Assembly: GCF_946463545.1 (NCBI RefSeq)
Contig: NZ_OX296583.1
Span: 248,001-312,000 of the forward strand
Length of the DNA stretch: 64,000 nt
From: Methanothermococcus thermolithotrophicus DSM 2095
Lineage (GTDB): Archaea > AGJL01 > Methanococci > Methanococcales > Methanococcaceae
Direction: 5' to 3'
Part shown: in pieces, positions 7,595-57,782 of the stretch
Layout: every line of letters begins with the position of its first letter
Numbering within the stretch: the stretch's first letter is position 1
The notes under the pieces: generated by a model
What the model was told of the DNA's origin: nothing
The model's input: the letters and a program-made list of their open reading frames with translations, nothing else
The model's database searches: none
Program-made: the position numbers and the translations under genes

Positions 7595-8279
7595 GTTAAA
7601 ATAAGACCATAGTGGGATGGAAATACCACAAAATATTTAATAGAATTTGCACAAAATCTAAGTTAAAATAAGACCATAGTGGGATGGAAATTTTAAATAA
7701 TAAAGTTCCTTTGTTAAATCATTATTGCGTTAAAATAAGACCATAGTGGGATGGAAATTCTCCTGAGCAAACAACACAAAGATTGAAATTACTGGTTAAA
7801 ATAAGACCATAGTGGGATGGAAATTTTCTTCGATGTCTTCTTCTGATAAGTTTGCAAACGAGTTAAAATAAGACCATAGTGGGATGGAAATTTTCTTCGA
7901 TGTCTTCTTCTGATAAGTTTGCAAACGAGTTAAAATAAGACCATAGTGGGATGGAAATGCTTCTTTGTTGCGGTATTTTTGATAAGCTATTTTGAGTTAA
8001 AATAAGACCATAGTAGGATGGAAATACGTATATGGTACCATCTTGAGATATAGCAGGGGAGTTAAAATAAGACCATAGTGGGATGGAAATCTAATAGCCC
8101 GTGCTGCTCTAAGATTTGACAGGTTAAAATAAGACCATAGTGGGATGGAAATATATCTTGAAATCTATGTAGCTAGACTTGGAACCTTGTTAAAATAAGA
8201 CCTTGTGGGATGGAAATTATGCGTTGTTTGTGTTTATAACTCTTGTTGCTGTTGTTAAAATCAGACCATTTATTTTTGG
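7595..8279 (+). CRISPR. CRISPR array, 10 repeats plus decayed terminal repeat
   Basis: A 30-bp repeat starting GTTAAAATAAGACC and ending GGGATGGAAAT begins at 7595, 7662, 7729, 7795, 7862, 7929, 7996, 8061, 8123 and 8189. Spacers are 32-37 bp. The repeat at 7996 has one G-to-A change, the one at 8189 is altered around positions 13-16 and one base short, and a last copy at 8254 keeps only its first half. The repeat end GGATGGAAAT resembles the crRNA 5' handle of type I/III systems, so transcription is probably on plus from the left. The spacers at 7825-7861 and 7892-7928 are identical. No cas gene is in the window. Confidence 0.97.
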
Positions 8280-12391: not shown

Positions 12392-12407
12392 GTACTCACC
12401 AAATATA

Positions 12408-12640
12408 TTAATACCATATTATTACCTTAATTAAAAATTATTAATATATATAGGTTATGGTAGGTGATAAGTTATGTTATATATAATTCACTGAAAAGAT
12501 ATTAATACTATATTATTACCTTAATTAAAAATTATTAATATATATAGGTTATGGTAAATGATAGATTGAGTAACACATAATTCACTAAAAAGATATAATA
12601 AATTACCTTATTATTAAAATTATTCATTATAATTATCGTA
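12408..12640 (+). repeat. 94-bp tandem duplication of the thiI leader, third diverged copy
   Basis: A unit of 94 bp (12408-12501) is repeated at 12502-12595 with few changes; both contain ATTATTACCTTAATTAAAAA and end with ATTCACTGAAAAGATA/ATTCACTAAAAAGATA. A third, shorter and more diverged copy from about 12596 runs into the actual ribosome site. The GGTGATAA of the third copy serves thiI; the same GGTGATAA followed by an ATG occurs in copy 1, whose reading frame stops after six codons. Confidence 0.85.
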
Positions 12641-14905: not shown

Positions 14906-15160
14906 TTATCCGCCAGAAACCGGAGGGTAGATTCCAATTTCACTATCTCCATTTATTACATCTTCACCAGTAGTTATTTCGCAATCTTTGGAAACTATCA
15001 CGTTTCCGTTGTTAAAATCCTCTTTTATCGAGATGTTGTATTCATCCTCTAAAATATCGATTAAATCTATTATCCTTATTTCTTCTTTATCCAAGGATAT
15101 TTTAAGTCCTTCACCGTAACATTCCCGGTATTTTGCAAAAAATTTAATATTTAATATCAT
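14906..15160 (-). CDS. Ubiquitin-like sulfur carrier (MoaD/ThiS/SAMP-like)
   Basis: 84 residues with a beta-grasp pattern (MILNIKFFAKYRECYG, ISLDKEEIRIIDLIDILE) and the diagnostic C-terminal Gly-Gly (IYPPVSGG). Such proteins are thiocarboxylated at the terminal Gly and deliver sulfur for molybdopterin, thiamine or tRNA thiolation, or are conjugated to proteins. No E1-like activating enzyme lies in the window. The ATG follows GGTGATATT, and that ribosome site is duplicated on the far side of a hairpin element just upstream. It lies 97 bases before ncsA. Confidence 0.88.
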   Translation of the reverse strand: MILNIKFFAKYRECYGEGLKISLDKEEIRIIDLIDILEDEYNISIKEDFNNGNVIVSKDCEITTGEDVINGDSEIGIYPPVSGG

Positions 15161-15163
15161 AAT

Positions 15164-15221
15164 ATCACCTGAACGTAGTGAAGGTGAGCTATGAAAACCG
15201 TTAGGTTTTCATTTAATCACC
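15164..15221. repeat. Hairpin element inserted at a ribosome site (copy D)
   Basis: A 46-bp core (15170-15215) starting TGAACGTAGTGAAGGTGAGC and holding the perfect 9-bp stem ATGAAAACC-gtta-GGTTTTCAT is flanked by direct repeats ATCACC (15164-15169 and 15216-15221). On the minus strand ATCACC reads GGTGAT, the ribosome site of the ubiquitin-like gene, so the duplication leaves that gene with an intact site. Confidence 0.75.
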
Positions 15222-15269
15222 AAAATCACATGTTAGAATTATAGTTGTTTGCGAATTTTATTGGAATTA

Positions 15270-15317
15270 GTTGAATAATCGTAGATTATTCAACTTCCCT
15301 GCAACTGTAGGTTGCAG
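15270..15317. repeat. Tandem hairpins in a gene-free stretch (copy F)
   Basis: GTTGAATAATC-gta-GATTATTCAAC is a perfect 11-bp stem (15270-15294), followed by CTGCAAC-tgtag-GTTGCAG (7 bp, 15299-15317). Together with copy D this is the only structure I see in the 340-base gap between the ubiquitin-like gene and the ferredoxin gene. It probably marks the end of the ferredoxin transcript or is another member of the palindromic family. Confidence 0.6.
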
Positions 15318-15501
15318 TGGATATTTACATACTCTAAATTCTCAAATGGTTGTTATTAGGCCTATTTTAAAATAAGTTATATCTTTCAATTCATTAAAGG
15401 CATTTTTCAATATCTAACGCAAACAACCGATAGTAATAGTAAAAAATTTCATTATCTGATAAATAATATTAAAAGAGATTAAAAATGTATTTAATATGTA
15501 T

Positions 15502-15900
15502 TTAAATGTCAAAAACCTCAATGGCTTTTACAGGACATACCTTAACGCAGTTTTTACAGCCTATGCATTCCTCTTCGTCAAATACTACGCTGTAGTCCTC
15601 TTTTATTTCAATTGCCCCAACTGGACAATGGACTACACATGCCCCACATTCAACACATGCTTCATCGTTTTTTTGTATTATCTTTGGAATATCCTCAACT
15701 TCACCGTATTTATTCAATATATCTATGGCTTGTTTTATCTGATCCTCGCTCCCATTAAATTCCAATATCAAAAATCCTTCTTGGGGCTCCATTTTAGCTT
15801 TCAATATATTCAATAGAATATTTGTGTTCAATATAACTTCTGAGACTATTGGCTTAGTTACGTTTTTTCCAGAAATCCAATAGTATATCCTTTTTTTCAT
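15502..15900 (-). CDS. NIL-domain 2[4Fe-4S] ferredoxin (homocysteine synthesis)
   Basis: 132 residues. The first ~75 residues form a NIL domain (small-molecule-binding ferredoxin-like fold); then two [4Fe-4S] motifs follow, CVECGACVVHCP and CIGCKNCVKVCP. In methanogens this protein works with the DUF39 protein encoded next to it to make homocysteine from aspartate semialdehyde and sulfide, presumably supplying electrons. The start ATG follows GGTGATTATATT, a ribosome site duplicated around a hairpin element. It lies downstream of the DUF39 gene with an 82-base gap. Confidence 0.88.
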   Translation of the reverse strand: MKKRIYYWISGKNVTKPIVSEVILNTNILLNILKAKMEPQEGFLILEFNGSEDQIKQAIDILNKYGEVEDIPKIIQKNDEACVECGACVVHCPVGAIEIKEDYSVVFDEEECIGCKNCVKVCPVKAIEVFDI

Positions 15901-15905
15901 AATAT

Positions 15906-15966
15906 AATCACCTGAACGAAGTGTAAGGTGAGCTGTAAAAATCCGAAGGATTTTTACTCAATCACC
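15906..15966. repeat. Hairpin element inserted at a ribosome site (copy E)
   Basis: A 47-bp core (15913-15959) starting TGAACGAAGTGTAAGGTGAG and holding the perfect 10-bp stem GTAAAAATCC-gaa-GGATTTTTAC is flanked by direct repeats AATCACC (15906-15912 and 15960-15966). The left copy is the GGTGATT ribosome site of the NIL-ferredoxin gene. The first 20 bases match copy D while the hairpin arms differ, yet remain self-complementary. Confidence 0.78.
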
Positions 15967-15982
15967 GTATTTTATCAAACAC

Positions 15983-17527
15983 TTAAATTTTGCTCACTAT
16001 ATTTGATCTACCGATAAGTTTTGAAAGATCCTCTGCGGTTACAATACCTAGTACTCTTTTATTACTGTCTAAAACTGGGACACCAGATATATTGTGAGCA
16101 GCCATTTTTCTTGCCACTACATCTATTGGTTCATCAACTGTAGAGCTCACAACATACTTTGTCATTATTTCTGCAATTGATTTTTTGTTCTGAGATACGG
16201 CTCTTGCGATATCCCATGATGTGACAATACCAGTTAAAACTCCATTTTCATCTACAATTGGCAGATGGTTTATATTGTTTTCAATTATAATTCTCGAAGC
16301 TTCTTCAACTGATATATTTGAACTTGCCACTATTGGTGGCTTGCTTAATATGTCTCCAACGAGTTTTGCCTTAGCTTTCATAGGTCTTGCAGAACCTTTT
16401 CCAAGTGTAGCCACTCTTTCTGAAAGTAAGAACTCTCCTTTTAAAATCCAGTCTTTAAGTTCTTCTGCGATTTCTCTTGAAACTTTGTAACTTGATACTG
16501 GAGCAGTTTTTACAGATTTCTGTACTTTTTTACCTTCAATCTCTACTTCAATATCTACGCATCCGCTTCTCAATTCCTTGTAATTAACTTTGCCCACTAT
16601 AGGTCTTTCCCTTCTTGGTACCCCATAATCGATAATTGAGACATATATATCTTCATCCCTTACGGCACAGGCTTTTGCAACATCTTCATTTAAAACTGGT
16701 ATTGGAATTCCCATTCCAACAAACAGTGAACTTCCGTATTTTGGTAGTGTTGCACCTCTTAGGTACTTACTATCCATTGTTTTAAGGTCACCACTTACCA
16801 TCAAAGTTCCGAAGGCATTATCAGGACTGTGCTGGGTTCCTTCGCTAACTACGTAGCCAATACCTCCACCTAGGAATATCTTGGTTCCAATTCCTATGGT
16901 GTTGTATGTCTTTGTTTCCCTGTTGTAATCGTTTTGAAGTGGGTTGAGTTGTCCAGCTCCAGAGTAGTTTATATTACCATACTCGGGAAGAAGTGTTCCC
17001 ATGTAGGTGTATATTTTTTCCTCTTTACTGTTTGTAGCTGCATTGTATGATTGGTAGCAGTTTCTTGGGTTAACAAGTATTGCCTGGTTTAGATCATCAA
17101 TTGTTATTGTAGTGGTTACCTTTTTTCTAGGGTAGCAGTCGGTAGTGTAACCTTCAGCTACCAACTCTATTTCTTTTCCTGCCACTAAATCTTCTATTAC
17201 ATGAGCTCCCCCATAATCGATACCTATATCATCATCGGTGTTTGGTTGAGTTGCACCGAGGTAGGTATCTACAGCCGCCAATCCAGAGTAGGATTCAACA
17301 CCGTTTAAATAAGTCTTTATCATTTTTATTGGTGGATCAGCATGACCAAAGTTTAGGAAGACCCCACTTGAGCACATTGCCCCGAATGTTCCAGTTGTAA
17401 CAACATCTACTTTCTCTGCTGCATCCTTTGGACCTAAATCTTCCACAATCTCAATCATCTCTTCGGCAGTTACTACTACTGCATCGCCACTCCTTATTTT
17501 TTCATTAATTTCTTGAATAGTTTTCAT
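15983..17527 (-). CDS. L-aspartate semialdehyde sulfurtransferase (DUF39 + CBS)
   Basis: About 514 residues. The N-terminal ~360 residues are the DUF39/COG1900 catalytic domain with Cys in GAMCSSGVFLNFGHADPP and YTTDCYPRK; one of these is thought to carry the persulfide used to turn aspartate semialdehyde into homocysteine. Two CBS motifs close the protein (about 385-510: ILSKPPIVASSN, LPIVDENGVLTGIVTSWDIA, GVPVLDSNKRVLGIVTAEDL) and probably sense adenosyl ligands such as SAM. ATG 17527 has GGATGATT upstream; the ATG three codons earlier overlaps that site. Asd, which makes the substrate, lies at 50.6 kb. Confidence 0.9.
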   Translation of the reverse strand: MKTIQEINEKIRSGDAVVVTAEEMIEIVEDLGPKDAAEKVDVVTTGTFGAMCSSGVFLNFGHADPPIKMIKTYLNGVESYSGLAAVDTYLGATQPNTDDDIGIDYGGAHVIEDLVAGKEIELVAEGYTTDCYPRKKVTTTITIDDLNQAILVNPRNCYQSYNAATNSKEEKIYTYMGTLLPEYGNINYSGAGQLNPLQNDYNRETKTYNTIGIGTKIFLGGGIGYVVSEGTQHSPDNAFGTLMVSGDLKTMDSKYLRGATLPKYGSSLFVGMGIPIPVLNEDVAKACAVRDEDIYVSIIDYGVPRRERPIVGKVNYKELRSGCVDIEVEIEGKKVQKSVKTAPVSSYKVSREIAEELKDWILKGEFLLSERVATLGKGSARPMKAKAKLVGDILSKPPIVASSNISVEEASRIIIENNINHLPIVDENGVLTGIVTSWDIARAVSQNKKSIAEIMTKYVVSSTVDEPIDVVARKMAAHNISGVPVLDSNKRVLGIVTAEDLSKLIGRSNIVSKI

Positions 17528-17781
17528 AATAATCATCCTAATACTTATATACTATTACACAATATTGCATTGTAGAGTTTAATTTTTTAAATATAATATA
17601 TATAGATTTCGATTCTATTTAGATATTAATGCATAATAGTTTCGTAAAACTAGCAACCTTAGTGCAATAGAAAAAGATAAATACTATTATATGCCATCTT
17701 ATTTGATACATCGAATTAATATAATGATATATTATGAGTATTTTATAAAATATCCTATTTTAAACGCAAGGAGGCCTTATT

Positions 17782-55319: not shown

Positions 55320-57782
55320 TTACACATTATACTCCTTTGTTATAACTTCCCTTATCTTTTTAGCGGTTTTTTCACCAATTCCTTCAACCTTCATTAACTC
55401 ATATTTATTGGCGTTAAATATCTTTTCTATGGATTTAAACTCCAATAACAAACTTTCGGCAAGTGCTGGACCTACTTCAGGAAGACTTTCAACAATGAAC
55501 TTTTGTCTTTCCCTCAAAGACATAGGTCTTTTTCCATACCTTACTGAGACCGCCCTTTTTTCCTTTAACTGTTCCCTTTCTGCTATCTTTATCAAAATAT
55601 TTGCAGTTTCTTTGATGTCCTTTGAAAATAGAACTGGAATACCAAAGTCTAAAATAATGGATAGTATGGTACCTTGAATAACGTTTTGGTGTAATCTATT
55701 AAACTCATTTCCTTCAATGATTAGAATTGGTTTTTCATATTTTTTGAGCTCCGAAAGCTGTTTAAAAAGCCTTTTGTCGATTATGGATTCAGCAAAATCT
55801 TCTGCAATTTTTCTCTCCACTGCAACTCTATCACTTAGTACATAATCCCCAATTTCCAAGGTTTTAAATTCAATGTTTGCTTTATCCACCAAATACCTTC
55901 CAATATGCCTTTCCCTCGTATCTACAATTATTTTTATTTTGTGGTTATCTTTTTCATTTTTCTTTAACAAACTGTCTGAATCCGCTTTTTCAATACCTGT
56001 GCCATAATTTCTTAAATCCAAATATTCTCCTTTAACTCTCCCAGTACCGGTTGTAAGTTGAACGAAATGCTTCGCATTTCGTTGCTCTTCGCTCCTTCGG
56101 AGCTCCGATTGAACAGTTTTTTTAGCATGTTCTTTATATTCCTCTTTCTTCTTTTTATCTTCATTTTTATACCCTAACTGTTCAGCTCGCTTTTCCAGAT
56201 CTTCAGATTTAGTTATTTCATTTACTTCTGAAATAACCTCCTGATGTGTGTCTTGCCATAGCGTCTGTTTTTCTAATCTTCTTTCCTGTTCTCTTTCTTT
56301 AAGCTTCTCATTTAGTATTCTTTGCATATCCTTAAGAATTTTCTTCATATTCTTTTCTTTTGATATCGCAGAACGATAGTAACCTTCGTCCCTACTGTTT
56401 CTTGTTATTAAAATTATGACCTCCCCACCTTCACCTCTCGCAGCTCTTCCCCTCCTTTGGATAAATCTTATCTCCGATGGAACCGGCTCATAGAATATTA
56501 CATAATTTACACTGGATATATCGATACCTTCTTCAGAGACACTCGTTGAAACAAGTACATCAACATTGTTTTTAAACTCTTCAATAGCCTTTACCTGCTC
56601 TTTTTGTGTCATTCCCTTTCCGTCCTTATTCGACTGACCAACAAACATTATAGCATCTATCCCACGATCCTTAAGATTTTTTACAATTTTACATACTGTA
56701 TCCCGATATTGAGCAAAGACTATTACTTTTTCGTTTTCTGTTTTTAGGATTTCCTCCACGATTTCAGCTAATTTATCAAGTTTTGGATGCTCAATATCAA
56801 GTTTCTGTAGACTATTAACCACTTTCAAAATTCTGGCATCGTTTAGGATAGATTTTGCAGATTTTGTATTTTGAGTTTTTAGCCTTTCATAGTAGTTTAA
56901 AAATGTACTTTTTCCCTGAGTTTCAAGTACTTCTATGGCATGTTCTATTTTTAGGGCTTCGGAAGCTATTTTCACCAGTTCATACTTTTTATTGTCATCT
57001 AAAGCCATTATTTTTTTCTGAAGTCCTAAAAGTTCGGTTTTAGTAACATTTATCGAAAATATTATATTATTATCCTTCAATACCCTCAACCTATCCTTTA
57101 AGGCGGATCTCAATAACTTAATATTTTCTTCAAATTCTTCAGGTAAATCGACCCTCTTTGCCCTTAATTTAACCTTGGCAACGTAGGGTTTTACATCGTT
57201 ATCGTCTTCGGTTTTGATTTCAACATGTTCTATACCAAGATTCTCACATACCTCTAAAATTCTATCGATATTTGAACCTGGGGAAGCCGTAAGCCCTAAA
57301 ACATGGGTTTTTTCTTTAAATTTACTTGCTACAAAAGTATAAGAATGGTTTCCAGTTGTATGGTGGGCTTCATCTGCTATTAAAAGAACAAAATCATCAA
57401 TATTAATCCTGCTAGCAATTATATCGTTCTCGACTATCTGGGGAGTGGTGATAAATACCTTACCTTTTTTCCACAAGGCTTCTCTCTTACTTGGGGGCGT
57501 TTTTCCAGTTAAAACCATTATATTGTCTTCACCAATGTTTAAAAACTGGGTCATGCTCCTATAATGTTGTTCAACCAAAGGTCTTGACGGAGCTATAATT
57601 AAAATTTTTCCGTCTTTTTTTGATAGTATGCCTGCAATTGTCAGAGCTGCGATGGCAGTTTTTCCAAGACCGGTTCCTAAAACACATAATGTATTCTTTT
57701 TTAATGCATTTGCAACAACGAGCTGCTGATAAATTCTTGATTCAATTGTATTTGGTTTTATGATGGGATGATCAATATACAT
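55320..57782 (-). CDS. hef: Hef helicase-nuclease (XPF/FANCM-like)
   Basis: 820 residues. It processes stalled or branched replication forks. Helicase part (about 1-500): LGTGLGKTAIAAL (Walker A), IADEAHHTT (DEAH), GLTASPGS, QRRGRAARGEGGEV (motif VI). Nuclease part (about 620-750): VDTRERHIGRYL and VERKIAEDFAESI (ERKxxxD). Two helix-hairpin-helix motifs follow (VGPALAESLLLEF, VEGIGEKTAKKIRE). The linker holds a 17-codon in-frame insertion read from a hairpin element at 56058-56114 (SELRRSEEQRNAKHF). Confidence 0.95.
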   Translation of the reverse strand: MYIDHPIIKPNTIESRIYQQLVVANALKKNTLCVLGTGLGKTAIAALTIAGILSKKDGKILIIAPSRPLVEQHYRSMTQFLNIGEDNIMVLTGKTPPSKREALWKKGKVFITTPQIVENDIIASRINIDDFVLLIADEAHHTTGNHSYTFVASKFKEKTHVLGLTASPGSNIDRILEVCENLGIEHVEIKTEDDNDVKPYVAKVKLRAKRVDLPEEFEENIKLLRSALKDRLRVLKDNNIIFSINVTKTELLGLQKKIMALDDNKKYELVKIASEALKIEHAIEVLETQGKSTFLNYYERLKTQNTKSAKSILNDARILKVVNSLQKLDIEHPKLDKLAEIVEEILKTENEKVIVFAQYRDTVCKIVKNLKDRGIDAIMFVGQSNKDGKGMTQKEQVKAIEEFKNNVDVLVSTSVSEEGIDISSVNYVIFYEPVPSEIRFIQRRGRAARGEGGEVIILITRNSRDEGYYRSAISKEKNMKKILKDMQRILNEKLKEREQERRLEKQTLWQDTHQEVISEVNEITKSEDLEKRAEQLGYKNEDKKKKEEYKEHAKKTVQSELRRSEEQRNAKHFVQLTTGTGRVKGEYLDLRNYGTGIEKADSDSLLKKNEKDNHKIKIIVDTRERHIGRYLVDKANIEFKTLEIGDYVLSDRVAVERKIAEDFAESIIDKRLFKQLSELKKYEKPILIIEGNEFNRLHQNVIQGTILSIILDFGIPVLFSKDIKETANILIKIAEREQLKEKRAVSVRYGKRPMSLRERQKFIVESLPEVGPALAESLLLEFKSIEKIFNANKYELMKVEGIGEKTAKKIREVITKEYNV
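56058..56114. repeat. Hairpin element inserted in frame in hef (copy H)
   Basis: ACGAAATGC-ttc-GCATTTCGT (perfect 9-bp stem, 56062-56082) and GCTCC-ttc-GGAGC (56091-56103) lie between two direct copies of TTGAAC (56058-56063 and 56109-56114). The copies start 51 bases apart, so the insertion adds 17 codons. Removing it would join KKTV directly to QLTTGTG. The left hairpin and following TTGCTC match copy C upstream of thi4. Confidence 0.8.

What the first reader, a model, noticed from the sequence alone, without database searches (positions are those of the whole stretch)
15164..15966. Hairpin elements whose flanking duplications are ribosome binding sites
Copies at 15170-15215 and 15913-15959 are each flanked by ATCACC/AATCACC, that is GGTGAT(T) on minus, the ribosome site of the gene just downstream in each case. 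Insertion thus duplicated the site and left translation intact. Two independent cases, together with a core of shared first 20 bases, suggest that the element targets GGTGAT or that only such insertions persist. The resulting leader places a hairpin between promoter and ribosome site, which may affect expression of two sulfur-metabolism genes.
Basis: partly seen in the sequence, partly recalled or inferred. Interest (0 to 1): 0.7.

Follow-up and report, generated by a model that had tools for sequence, protein, structure and literature searches.

The report
Mobile hairpins carrying ribosome-binding sites
This methane-making archaeon carries dozens of ~50-base jumping hairpin sequences; some landed exactly in a gene's ribosome-binding site, and because the hairpin's own end is also a ribosome-binding site, the gene should still be translated.

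Summary
Two ~52-nt double-hairpin units sit between two GGTGAT (Shine-Dalgarno, SD) motifs just upstream of a ThiS/MoaD gene and a NIL-ferredoxin gene. Orthologues in relatives have one SD and no hairpin, so both are lineage-specific insertions. They belong to a large family: 61 covariance-model matches at E<=0.01 in this 1.7-Mb Methanococcales genome, 12 of 40 other genomes positive, 28 negative. Paralogous empty and filled sites in this genome give the boundary: TTTGAT^TCCAAAACC becomes TTTGAT-[TGAAC-hairpin1-AGCTC-hairpin2-GAT]-TCCAAAACC. Element types ending GGTGAT and CCGAT occupy the same target, so the right-hand GGT is element sequence and at most GAT is duplicated. The element inserts after (G/A)AT; the GAT of a GGTGAT SD is one such target, and there the element's own GGTGAT end replaces the SD. 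Other copies lie in non-SD repeats, in frame inside genes, or at gene ends. Both hairpins covary. Folding predicts unchanged SD accessibility for the two window genes, because the stranded native SD pairs with the element's anti-SD. Closest known kinds: archaeal PATEs and Rickettsia palindromic elements. No Y1 transposase was found in this genome; the mobilising enzyme is unknown.

The parts
15164..15215 (-). double-hairpin element copy 1 (52 nt, T(A)AATG...CAGGTGAT), upstream of the ThiS/MoaD-family gene
   Evidence: sequence; best model match in the genome, 87.3 bits, in a model built from copies including it
15216..15221 (-). left flank GGTGAT of copy 1: the stranded native SD
   Evidence: orthologues carry the empty site, e.g. 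L196 attattttGGTGATattATG
15164..15169 (-). right end GGTGAT of copy 1, the SD now placed 3 nt before ATG
   Evidence: spacing to ATG; GGT is element sequence
15191..15212 (-). hairpin 1 of copy 1: ATGAAAACC-TAAC-GGTTTTCAT
   Evidence: fold and covariation
15183..15187 (-). internal anti-SD TCACC of copy 1, able to pair with either GGTGA
   Evidence: fold; opening energies
14906..15160 (-). ThiS/MoaD-family small sulfur-carrier-like gene
   Evidence: PF02597 ThiS, E 8e-8
15907..15960 (-). double-hairpin element copy 2 (54 nt, TGAGTA...CAGGTGAT), upstream of the NIL-ferredoxin gene
   Evidence: sequence; 77.5 bits
15961..15966 (-). left flank GGTGAT of copy 2: the stranded native SD
   Evidence: orthologues have one GGTGA/GGTGG SD and no hairpin
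15907..15912 (-). right end GGTGAT of copy 2, the SD now placed 6 nt before ATG
   Evidence: sequence
15935..15957 (-). hairpin 1 of copy 2: GTAAAAATCC-TTC-GGATTTTTAC
   Evidence: fold and covariation
15927..15931 (-). internal anti-SD TCACC of copy 2
   Evidence: fold
15502..15900 (-). NIL-domain 4Fe-4S ferredoxin gene
   Evidence: PF09383 NIL and PF00037 Fer4
15983..17536 (-). HcyBio-CBS gene (homocysteine biosynthesis), upstream neighbour
   Evidence: PF01837, E 4e-146
56059..56109 (+). third family member in the window, CCGAT-ended: TGAACGAAATGC-TTC-GCATTTCGTTGCTCTTCGCTCCTTCGGAGCTCCGAT
   Evidence: structure-based scan and sequence

Best explanation
The two features are copies of a dispersed, formerly or still mobile, non-coding double-hairpin element of about 46-60 nt. 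It inserts precisely after (G/A)AT with no target duplication longer than 3 nt: left flank ..GAT, then [T(G/A)AA-hairpin1-A(G/A)CTC-hairpin2-GAT], then the right flank. One common right-end type finishes in GGTGAT. When the target GAT is the end of a native GGTGAT Shine-Dalgarno site, the element's right end becomes the new SD, the old one is stranded about 50 nt upstream, and translation can continue. Shown: the copies, the family, the covarying structure, empty sites, the exact boundary, and that the right-end GGT is element sequence. Inferred: transposition as the mode of spread, neutrality for translation, decay of the stranded SD. Unknown: the mobilising enzyme; a Y1/IS605-type mechanism is only an analogy.
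For: Family: 105 model matches at E<=1 and 61 at E<=0.01 in this genome, none in 28 of 41 genomes. Paralogous empty and filled sites with two right-end types at one target. Orthologous empty sites for both window genes. Target statistics. In-frame copies inside a RACo-type gene shared with G004 and absent in G006 and inside TnpB copies of G004. Covariation of the stems. Right ends GGTGA at SDs 13/28 against 0/18 for CCGA/GATGAT ends. Tandem units at SDs also in G009 and G015.
Against: No closely related strain was available, so no insertion was seen as a recent event. No candidate transposase: PF01797 is absent from this genome. Statistics on SD copies include tandem units that are not independent. 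Several SD copies are predicted to bury the SD, which does not fit strict neutrality. Left-flank GAT leaves a 3-nt duplication possible.
Confidence: 0.8

Rival explanations
1. One reading: a transposable hairpin that makes 6-7 bp target duplications of GGTGAT(T) and specifically targets SD sites.
For: Both window copies and the first unit at 239252 have GGTGAT on both sides; left GGTGAT in 10/13 SD copies against 0/15 others.
Against: Elements ending GGTGAT or CCGAT occupy the same host target TTTGAT^TCC, where the left flank has no GGTGAT. Left flanks are GAT 29, AAT 10 of 54. Fifteen GGTGA-ended copies away from SDs have no left GGTGAT.
Confidence: 0.1
2. A conserved regulatory RNA leader: the internal TCACC pairs with either GGTGA and switches translation of the downstream gene (riboswitch or thermosensor).
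For: Three-segment GGTGA-TCACC-GGTGA pairing; removing the left GGTGA raises the predicted SD opening energy from about 2.4 to 5.2-5.4 kcal/mol; stems covary.
Against: Copies lie antisense and in frame inside genes, inside other repeats and at gene ends. Genes with SD copies have unrelated functions. Orthologues lack the leader. Predicted accessibility of the two window SDs is the same without the element. No Rfam match.
Confidence: 0.1
3. Machinery rival within the mobile-element view: the elements are terminal-only derivatives of IS200/IS605-type transposons (PATEs), moved as single strands by a Y1 transposase now lost from this genome.
For: No terminal inverted repeats, two near-terminal palindromes, no duplication beyond 3 nt, insertion 3' of a short target, all as described for PATEs (PMC3119063). 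TnpB presence tracks model matches, 13/13 against 5/24 genomes. Matching hairpins follow TnpB genes in G026 and G030.
Against: No Y1_Tnp in this genome. The hairpin after this genome's own TnpB scores only 15.9 bits. The TnpB association is not corrected for phylogeny, and part of it is the TnpB-end matches themselves.
Confidence: 0.45
4. Local replication slippage or template switching duplicated the SD segment and built the hairpin in place.
For: Tandem arrays separated by GGTGAT; quasi-palindrome correction could give stem covariation without selection.
Against: The same element lies at many unrelated sites with different flanks and exact empty counterparts. Slippage may explain growth of arrays, not dispersal.
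Confidence: 0.05

Closest known systems
PATEs, palindrome-associated transposable elements of Haloquadratum walsbyi (PMC3119063)
   Same: Archaeal, non-coding, no terminal inverted repeats, near-terminal palindromes, no target duplication, down to 52 bp, heterogeneous sequences, nested with other mobile elements
   Different: No demonstrated kinship to IS605 ends here; no Y1 transposase in the genome; an SD-like right end and SD-located copies are not described in the passages read
Rickettsia palindromic elements (RPE; reviewed in PMC10969869)
   Same: Short palindromic elements with in-frame copies inside unrelated protein genes
   Different: RPEs are ~150 bp bacterial families; here about 50 nt with a (G/A)AT target and SD-ending types
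REP/REPIN elements with RAYT transposases (PMC3733652)
   Same: Short dispersed palindromes with complementary stem variants, singletons and clusters
   Different: No conserved GTAG or CGTC tag; no Y1 (RAYT-type) protein in this genome
Mitochondrial double-hairpin elements and yeast GC clusters (PMC4478555 and its reference to Paquin et al. 2000)
   Same: Two hairpins, sporadic distribution, merging and nesting of units, unknown mobiliser
   Different: Mitochondrial; GC clusters are flanked by AG or ACT repeats; no SD function there
MITEs
   Same: Non-autonomous, short, multi-copy
   Different: No terminal inverted repeats and no clear target duplication here

Membership tests
PATE | no terminal inverted repeats | tested here: met
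   ends are T(G/A)AAC... and ...(GGT/CC)GAT, not inverted copies
PATE | palindromes near both termini | tested here: met
   hairpins 1 and 2
PATE | no target duplication | tested here: inconclusive
   at most GAT; left AAT with right GAT in 10 copies favours none
PATE | termini related to IS605-type transposons | tested here: inconclusive
   38.8-bit matches after TnpB in G026/G030, only 15.9 bits after this genome's TnpB
PATE | moved in trans by a Y1 transposase | tested here: not met
   PF01797 absent from this genome; present in 5 of 37 genomes searched; past presence not testable
REP/REPIN | conserved GTAG (or CGTC) tag beside the hairpin | tested here: not met
   the bases before AG belong to the variable stem: CATAG, TACAG, TTGTAG, TACAA
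REP/REPIN | RAYT (Y1) transposase in the genome | tested here: not met
Rickettsia palindromic element | in-frame insertion in protein genes | tested here: met
   RACo-type gene and membrane-protein gene here; TnpB in G004
Rickettsia palindromic element | sequence kinship to RPE families | not tested
   no RPE sequences compared
MITE | terminal inverted repeats and target duplication | tested here: not met
Rfam RNA family | match at gathering score | tested here: not met
   0 matches in the window

The most novel reading that the evidence does not exclude
The element is adapted to live in Shine-Dalgarno sites: its right end is itself an SD, its target overlaps the SD, and its internal anti-SD is absorbed by the stranded native SD, so that insertion is close to translation-neutral. 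This would be a mobile element with a built-in portable ribosome-binding site.
Probability: 0.3. Interest if true: 0.72.

Novelty: new variant of a known kind. Interest (0 to 1): 0.56.

Why it matters
I know of no description of this family in Methanococcales, and none turned up in the library searched. It gives an archaeal case in which short palindromic elements pass two filters: reading frame inside genes and SD identity upstream of genes. It also offers a clean way to ask whether mobile elements evolve ends that make insertion harmless. Exact empty/filled pairs within one chromosome make target and boundary directly testable.

Tried and rejected
Rfam gathering search: nothing. A structure of wrong length and a reference with a stop were corrected. 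Target duplication of 6-7 bp: rejected. The idea that the internal anti-sequence is templated by the target (TCACC at GGTGA; CCCTTC at GGAAGGG in G004 TnpB) was attractive, but most copies away from SDs have no such match with the left flank, so it was dropped. REP/GTAG membership: rejected. Regulon or riboswitch: rejected on the range of genes and sites. Plasmid tblastn of the ferredoxin was uninformative. My in-frame scan covered only copies with a recognised right end.

Full report
What is there. The window is bases 248001-312000 of a single-contig 1,706,496-base genome. On the minus strand each copy reads GGTGAT, hairpin 1, AGCTCACC, hairpin 2, GGTGAT, then 3 or 6 bases and ATG. The genes are a ThiS/MoaD-family protein and a NIL-domain ferredoxin downstream of a HcyBio-CBS gene. 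Only two GGTGAT pairs with this spacing exist in the window, against 0.09 expected.

A family, not a pair. A strict pattern finds 7 copies in the genome. A covariance model built from 7 copies finds 105 matches at E<=1 and 61 at E<=0.01, with 12 of 40 other genomes positive and 28 negative; the negatives include family members of similar size, a control for chance hairpins (repeated at E<=1e-4). The grammar is T(G/A)AA, a variable stem (for example ACAAAATCC/GGATTTTGT, ATGAAAACC/GGTTTTCAT, ACGAAACC/GGTTTCGT), A(G/A)CTC, then a second hairpin whose end is GGTGAT, CCGAT or GATGAT. Stem changes are compensatory: 148 cells with two-sided changes against 47 in shuffles, 95% of cells paired (that alignment was fitted to the structure, but the seven-sequence MAFFT alignment agrees). 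Compensation could come from selection, conversion between copies, or quasi-palindrome correction; these data do not separate them.

Insertion is shown by empty sites. ThiS/MoaD orthologues in nine relatives have a single GGTGAT (GGTGGT in one) and no hairpin; the closest, L196, reads attattttGGTGATattATG against gattttGGTGAT[element]attATG here. NIL-ferredoxin orthologues in Methanothermococcus contigs have GGTGA or GGTGG just before ATG and no hairpin.

The boundary is shown inside this genome. A dispersed host repeat is empty at L199, L200 and L202-L206 (for example L204, aaaaccttttagaaaaaggtTTTGATTCCAAAACC) and filled at L209 (TTTGAT[TGAACGAAAACCTAACGGTTTTCATAGCTCACCAACTTCGTTGGTGAT]TCCAAAACC) and at L210 and L213 with a CCGAT-ended element at the same base. 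So the target contributes GAT, and the GGT of the right end belongs to the element. Of 54 non-tandem copies the left flank ends in GAT 29 times and AAT 10 times; the right end keeps GA in 46 of 47 (right-end patterns were used to find the ends). This fits insertion after (G/A)AT with no duplication, or with at most 3 nt.

Link to SDs. Among copies read in full, 13 of 28 that end in GGTGA sit at SDs of ORFs (four are inner units of tandem arrays that I assigned by hand), against 0 of 18 with CCGA or GATGAT ends, p=5e-4. One further copy, ending CGTGAT, also sits at an SD and was left out of that table. A left GGTGAT is found in 10 of 13 SD copies and 0 of 15 others, p=2e-5, but tandem units inflate this; clean single cases are the two window genes and the first unit at 239252. 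In the window about 44% of long ORFs have a GGTGA SD but only 5 of 54 have GGTGAT, which fits a requirement for GAT rather than for SDs in general. Tandem units at SDs also occur in G009 and G015. I read this as a target preference for GAT plus survival of insertions whose right end replaces the SD. Other SD copies have degenerate left flanks (GGGAT, GGAGAT, AGTGAC), consistent with decay of the stranded SD; this is inference.

Inside genes. A RACo-type corrinoid activator gene carries two tandem units in frame and antisense. A 91%-identical homologue in G004 shares them with a compensatory change in hairpin 2 (CATC/GATG against CACC/GGTG), and the homologue in G006 lacks them. TnpB copies in G004 differ by a 48-nt in-frame insertion. 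A membrane-protein gene at 1650629 has an in-frame copy.

Translation. Predicted SD opening energies are 2.41 (ThiS/MoaD) and 2.37 kcal/mol (ferredoxin) with the element, 2.74 and 3.08 with it removed, and a median of 3.22 for 24 window genes. Replacing the left GGTGA raises them to 5.38 and 5.20. For these two genes insertion is therefore predicted neutral, because the stranded SD holds the element's anti-SD. Other SD copies are predicted to bury the SD (6-7 kcal/mol), so effects will vary. All of this is folding prediction at 37 and 62 C, not measurement.

Machinery. No Y1 transposase was found in this genome. Two TnpB genes exist, with no transposase partner among ORFs of at least 90 aa beside them. 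TnpB presence tracks model matches across genomes (13/13 against 5/24, p=2e-6, not corrected for phylogeny), and some Methanocaldococcaceae TnpB genes are followed by matching hairpins. An IS605/PATE origin is the best lead, not a result.

Caution. One script joined flanks across two HEPN-type reading frames before I took account of the gene type. That output is not used as evidence, and the step is listed under referred steps.

Noticed in passing
window 15278-15333: A different hairpin-pair element (AGTTGAATAATC..GATTATTCAACTTCCCTGCAACTG..GGTTGCAGTGGATAT) lies upstream of copy 1; relatives of it are nested inside double-hairpin elements at L006 and L010.
   Followed up: partly
window 56059-56109: A third, CCGAT-ended member of the family in the window; its gene context was not worked out.
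   Followed up: partly
window 7595-8230: CRISPR array (repeat GTTAAAATAAGACCATAGTGGGATGGAAAT) in which two neighbouring repeat-spacer units, 7795-7861 and 7862-7928, are identical.
   Followed up: no
window 12401-12588: A 94-nt tandem duplication (87% identical) in the divergent intergenic region between a PP-loop gene and a ThiI-like gene.
   Followed up: no
L179 and L180: In-frame tandem elements add about 30 residues to a RACo-type corrinoid activator; shared with G004 with a compensatory hairpin change, absent in G006.
   Followed up: yes
L106 and L118: Two reading frames that look like HEPN-domain genes are hit by elements, one in frame (1670903), one interrupted (176912).
   Followed up: partly
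L165 about 2139-2198: A double hairpin directly downstream of this genome's TnpB resembles the element weakly (15.9 bits); possibly part of a TnpB guide-RNA region.
   Followed up: partly
L201 upstream of 1501: Yet another hairpin type (TCGAAGCAAATC..., ...TTTTTGTCGAGA) is inserted in the loop of the host repeat; the genome holds several nested hairpin families.
   Followed up: no
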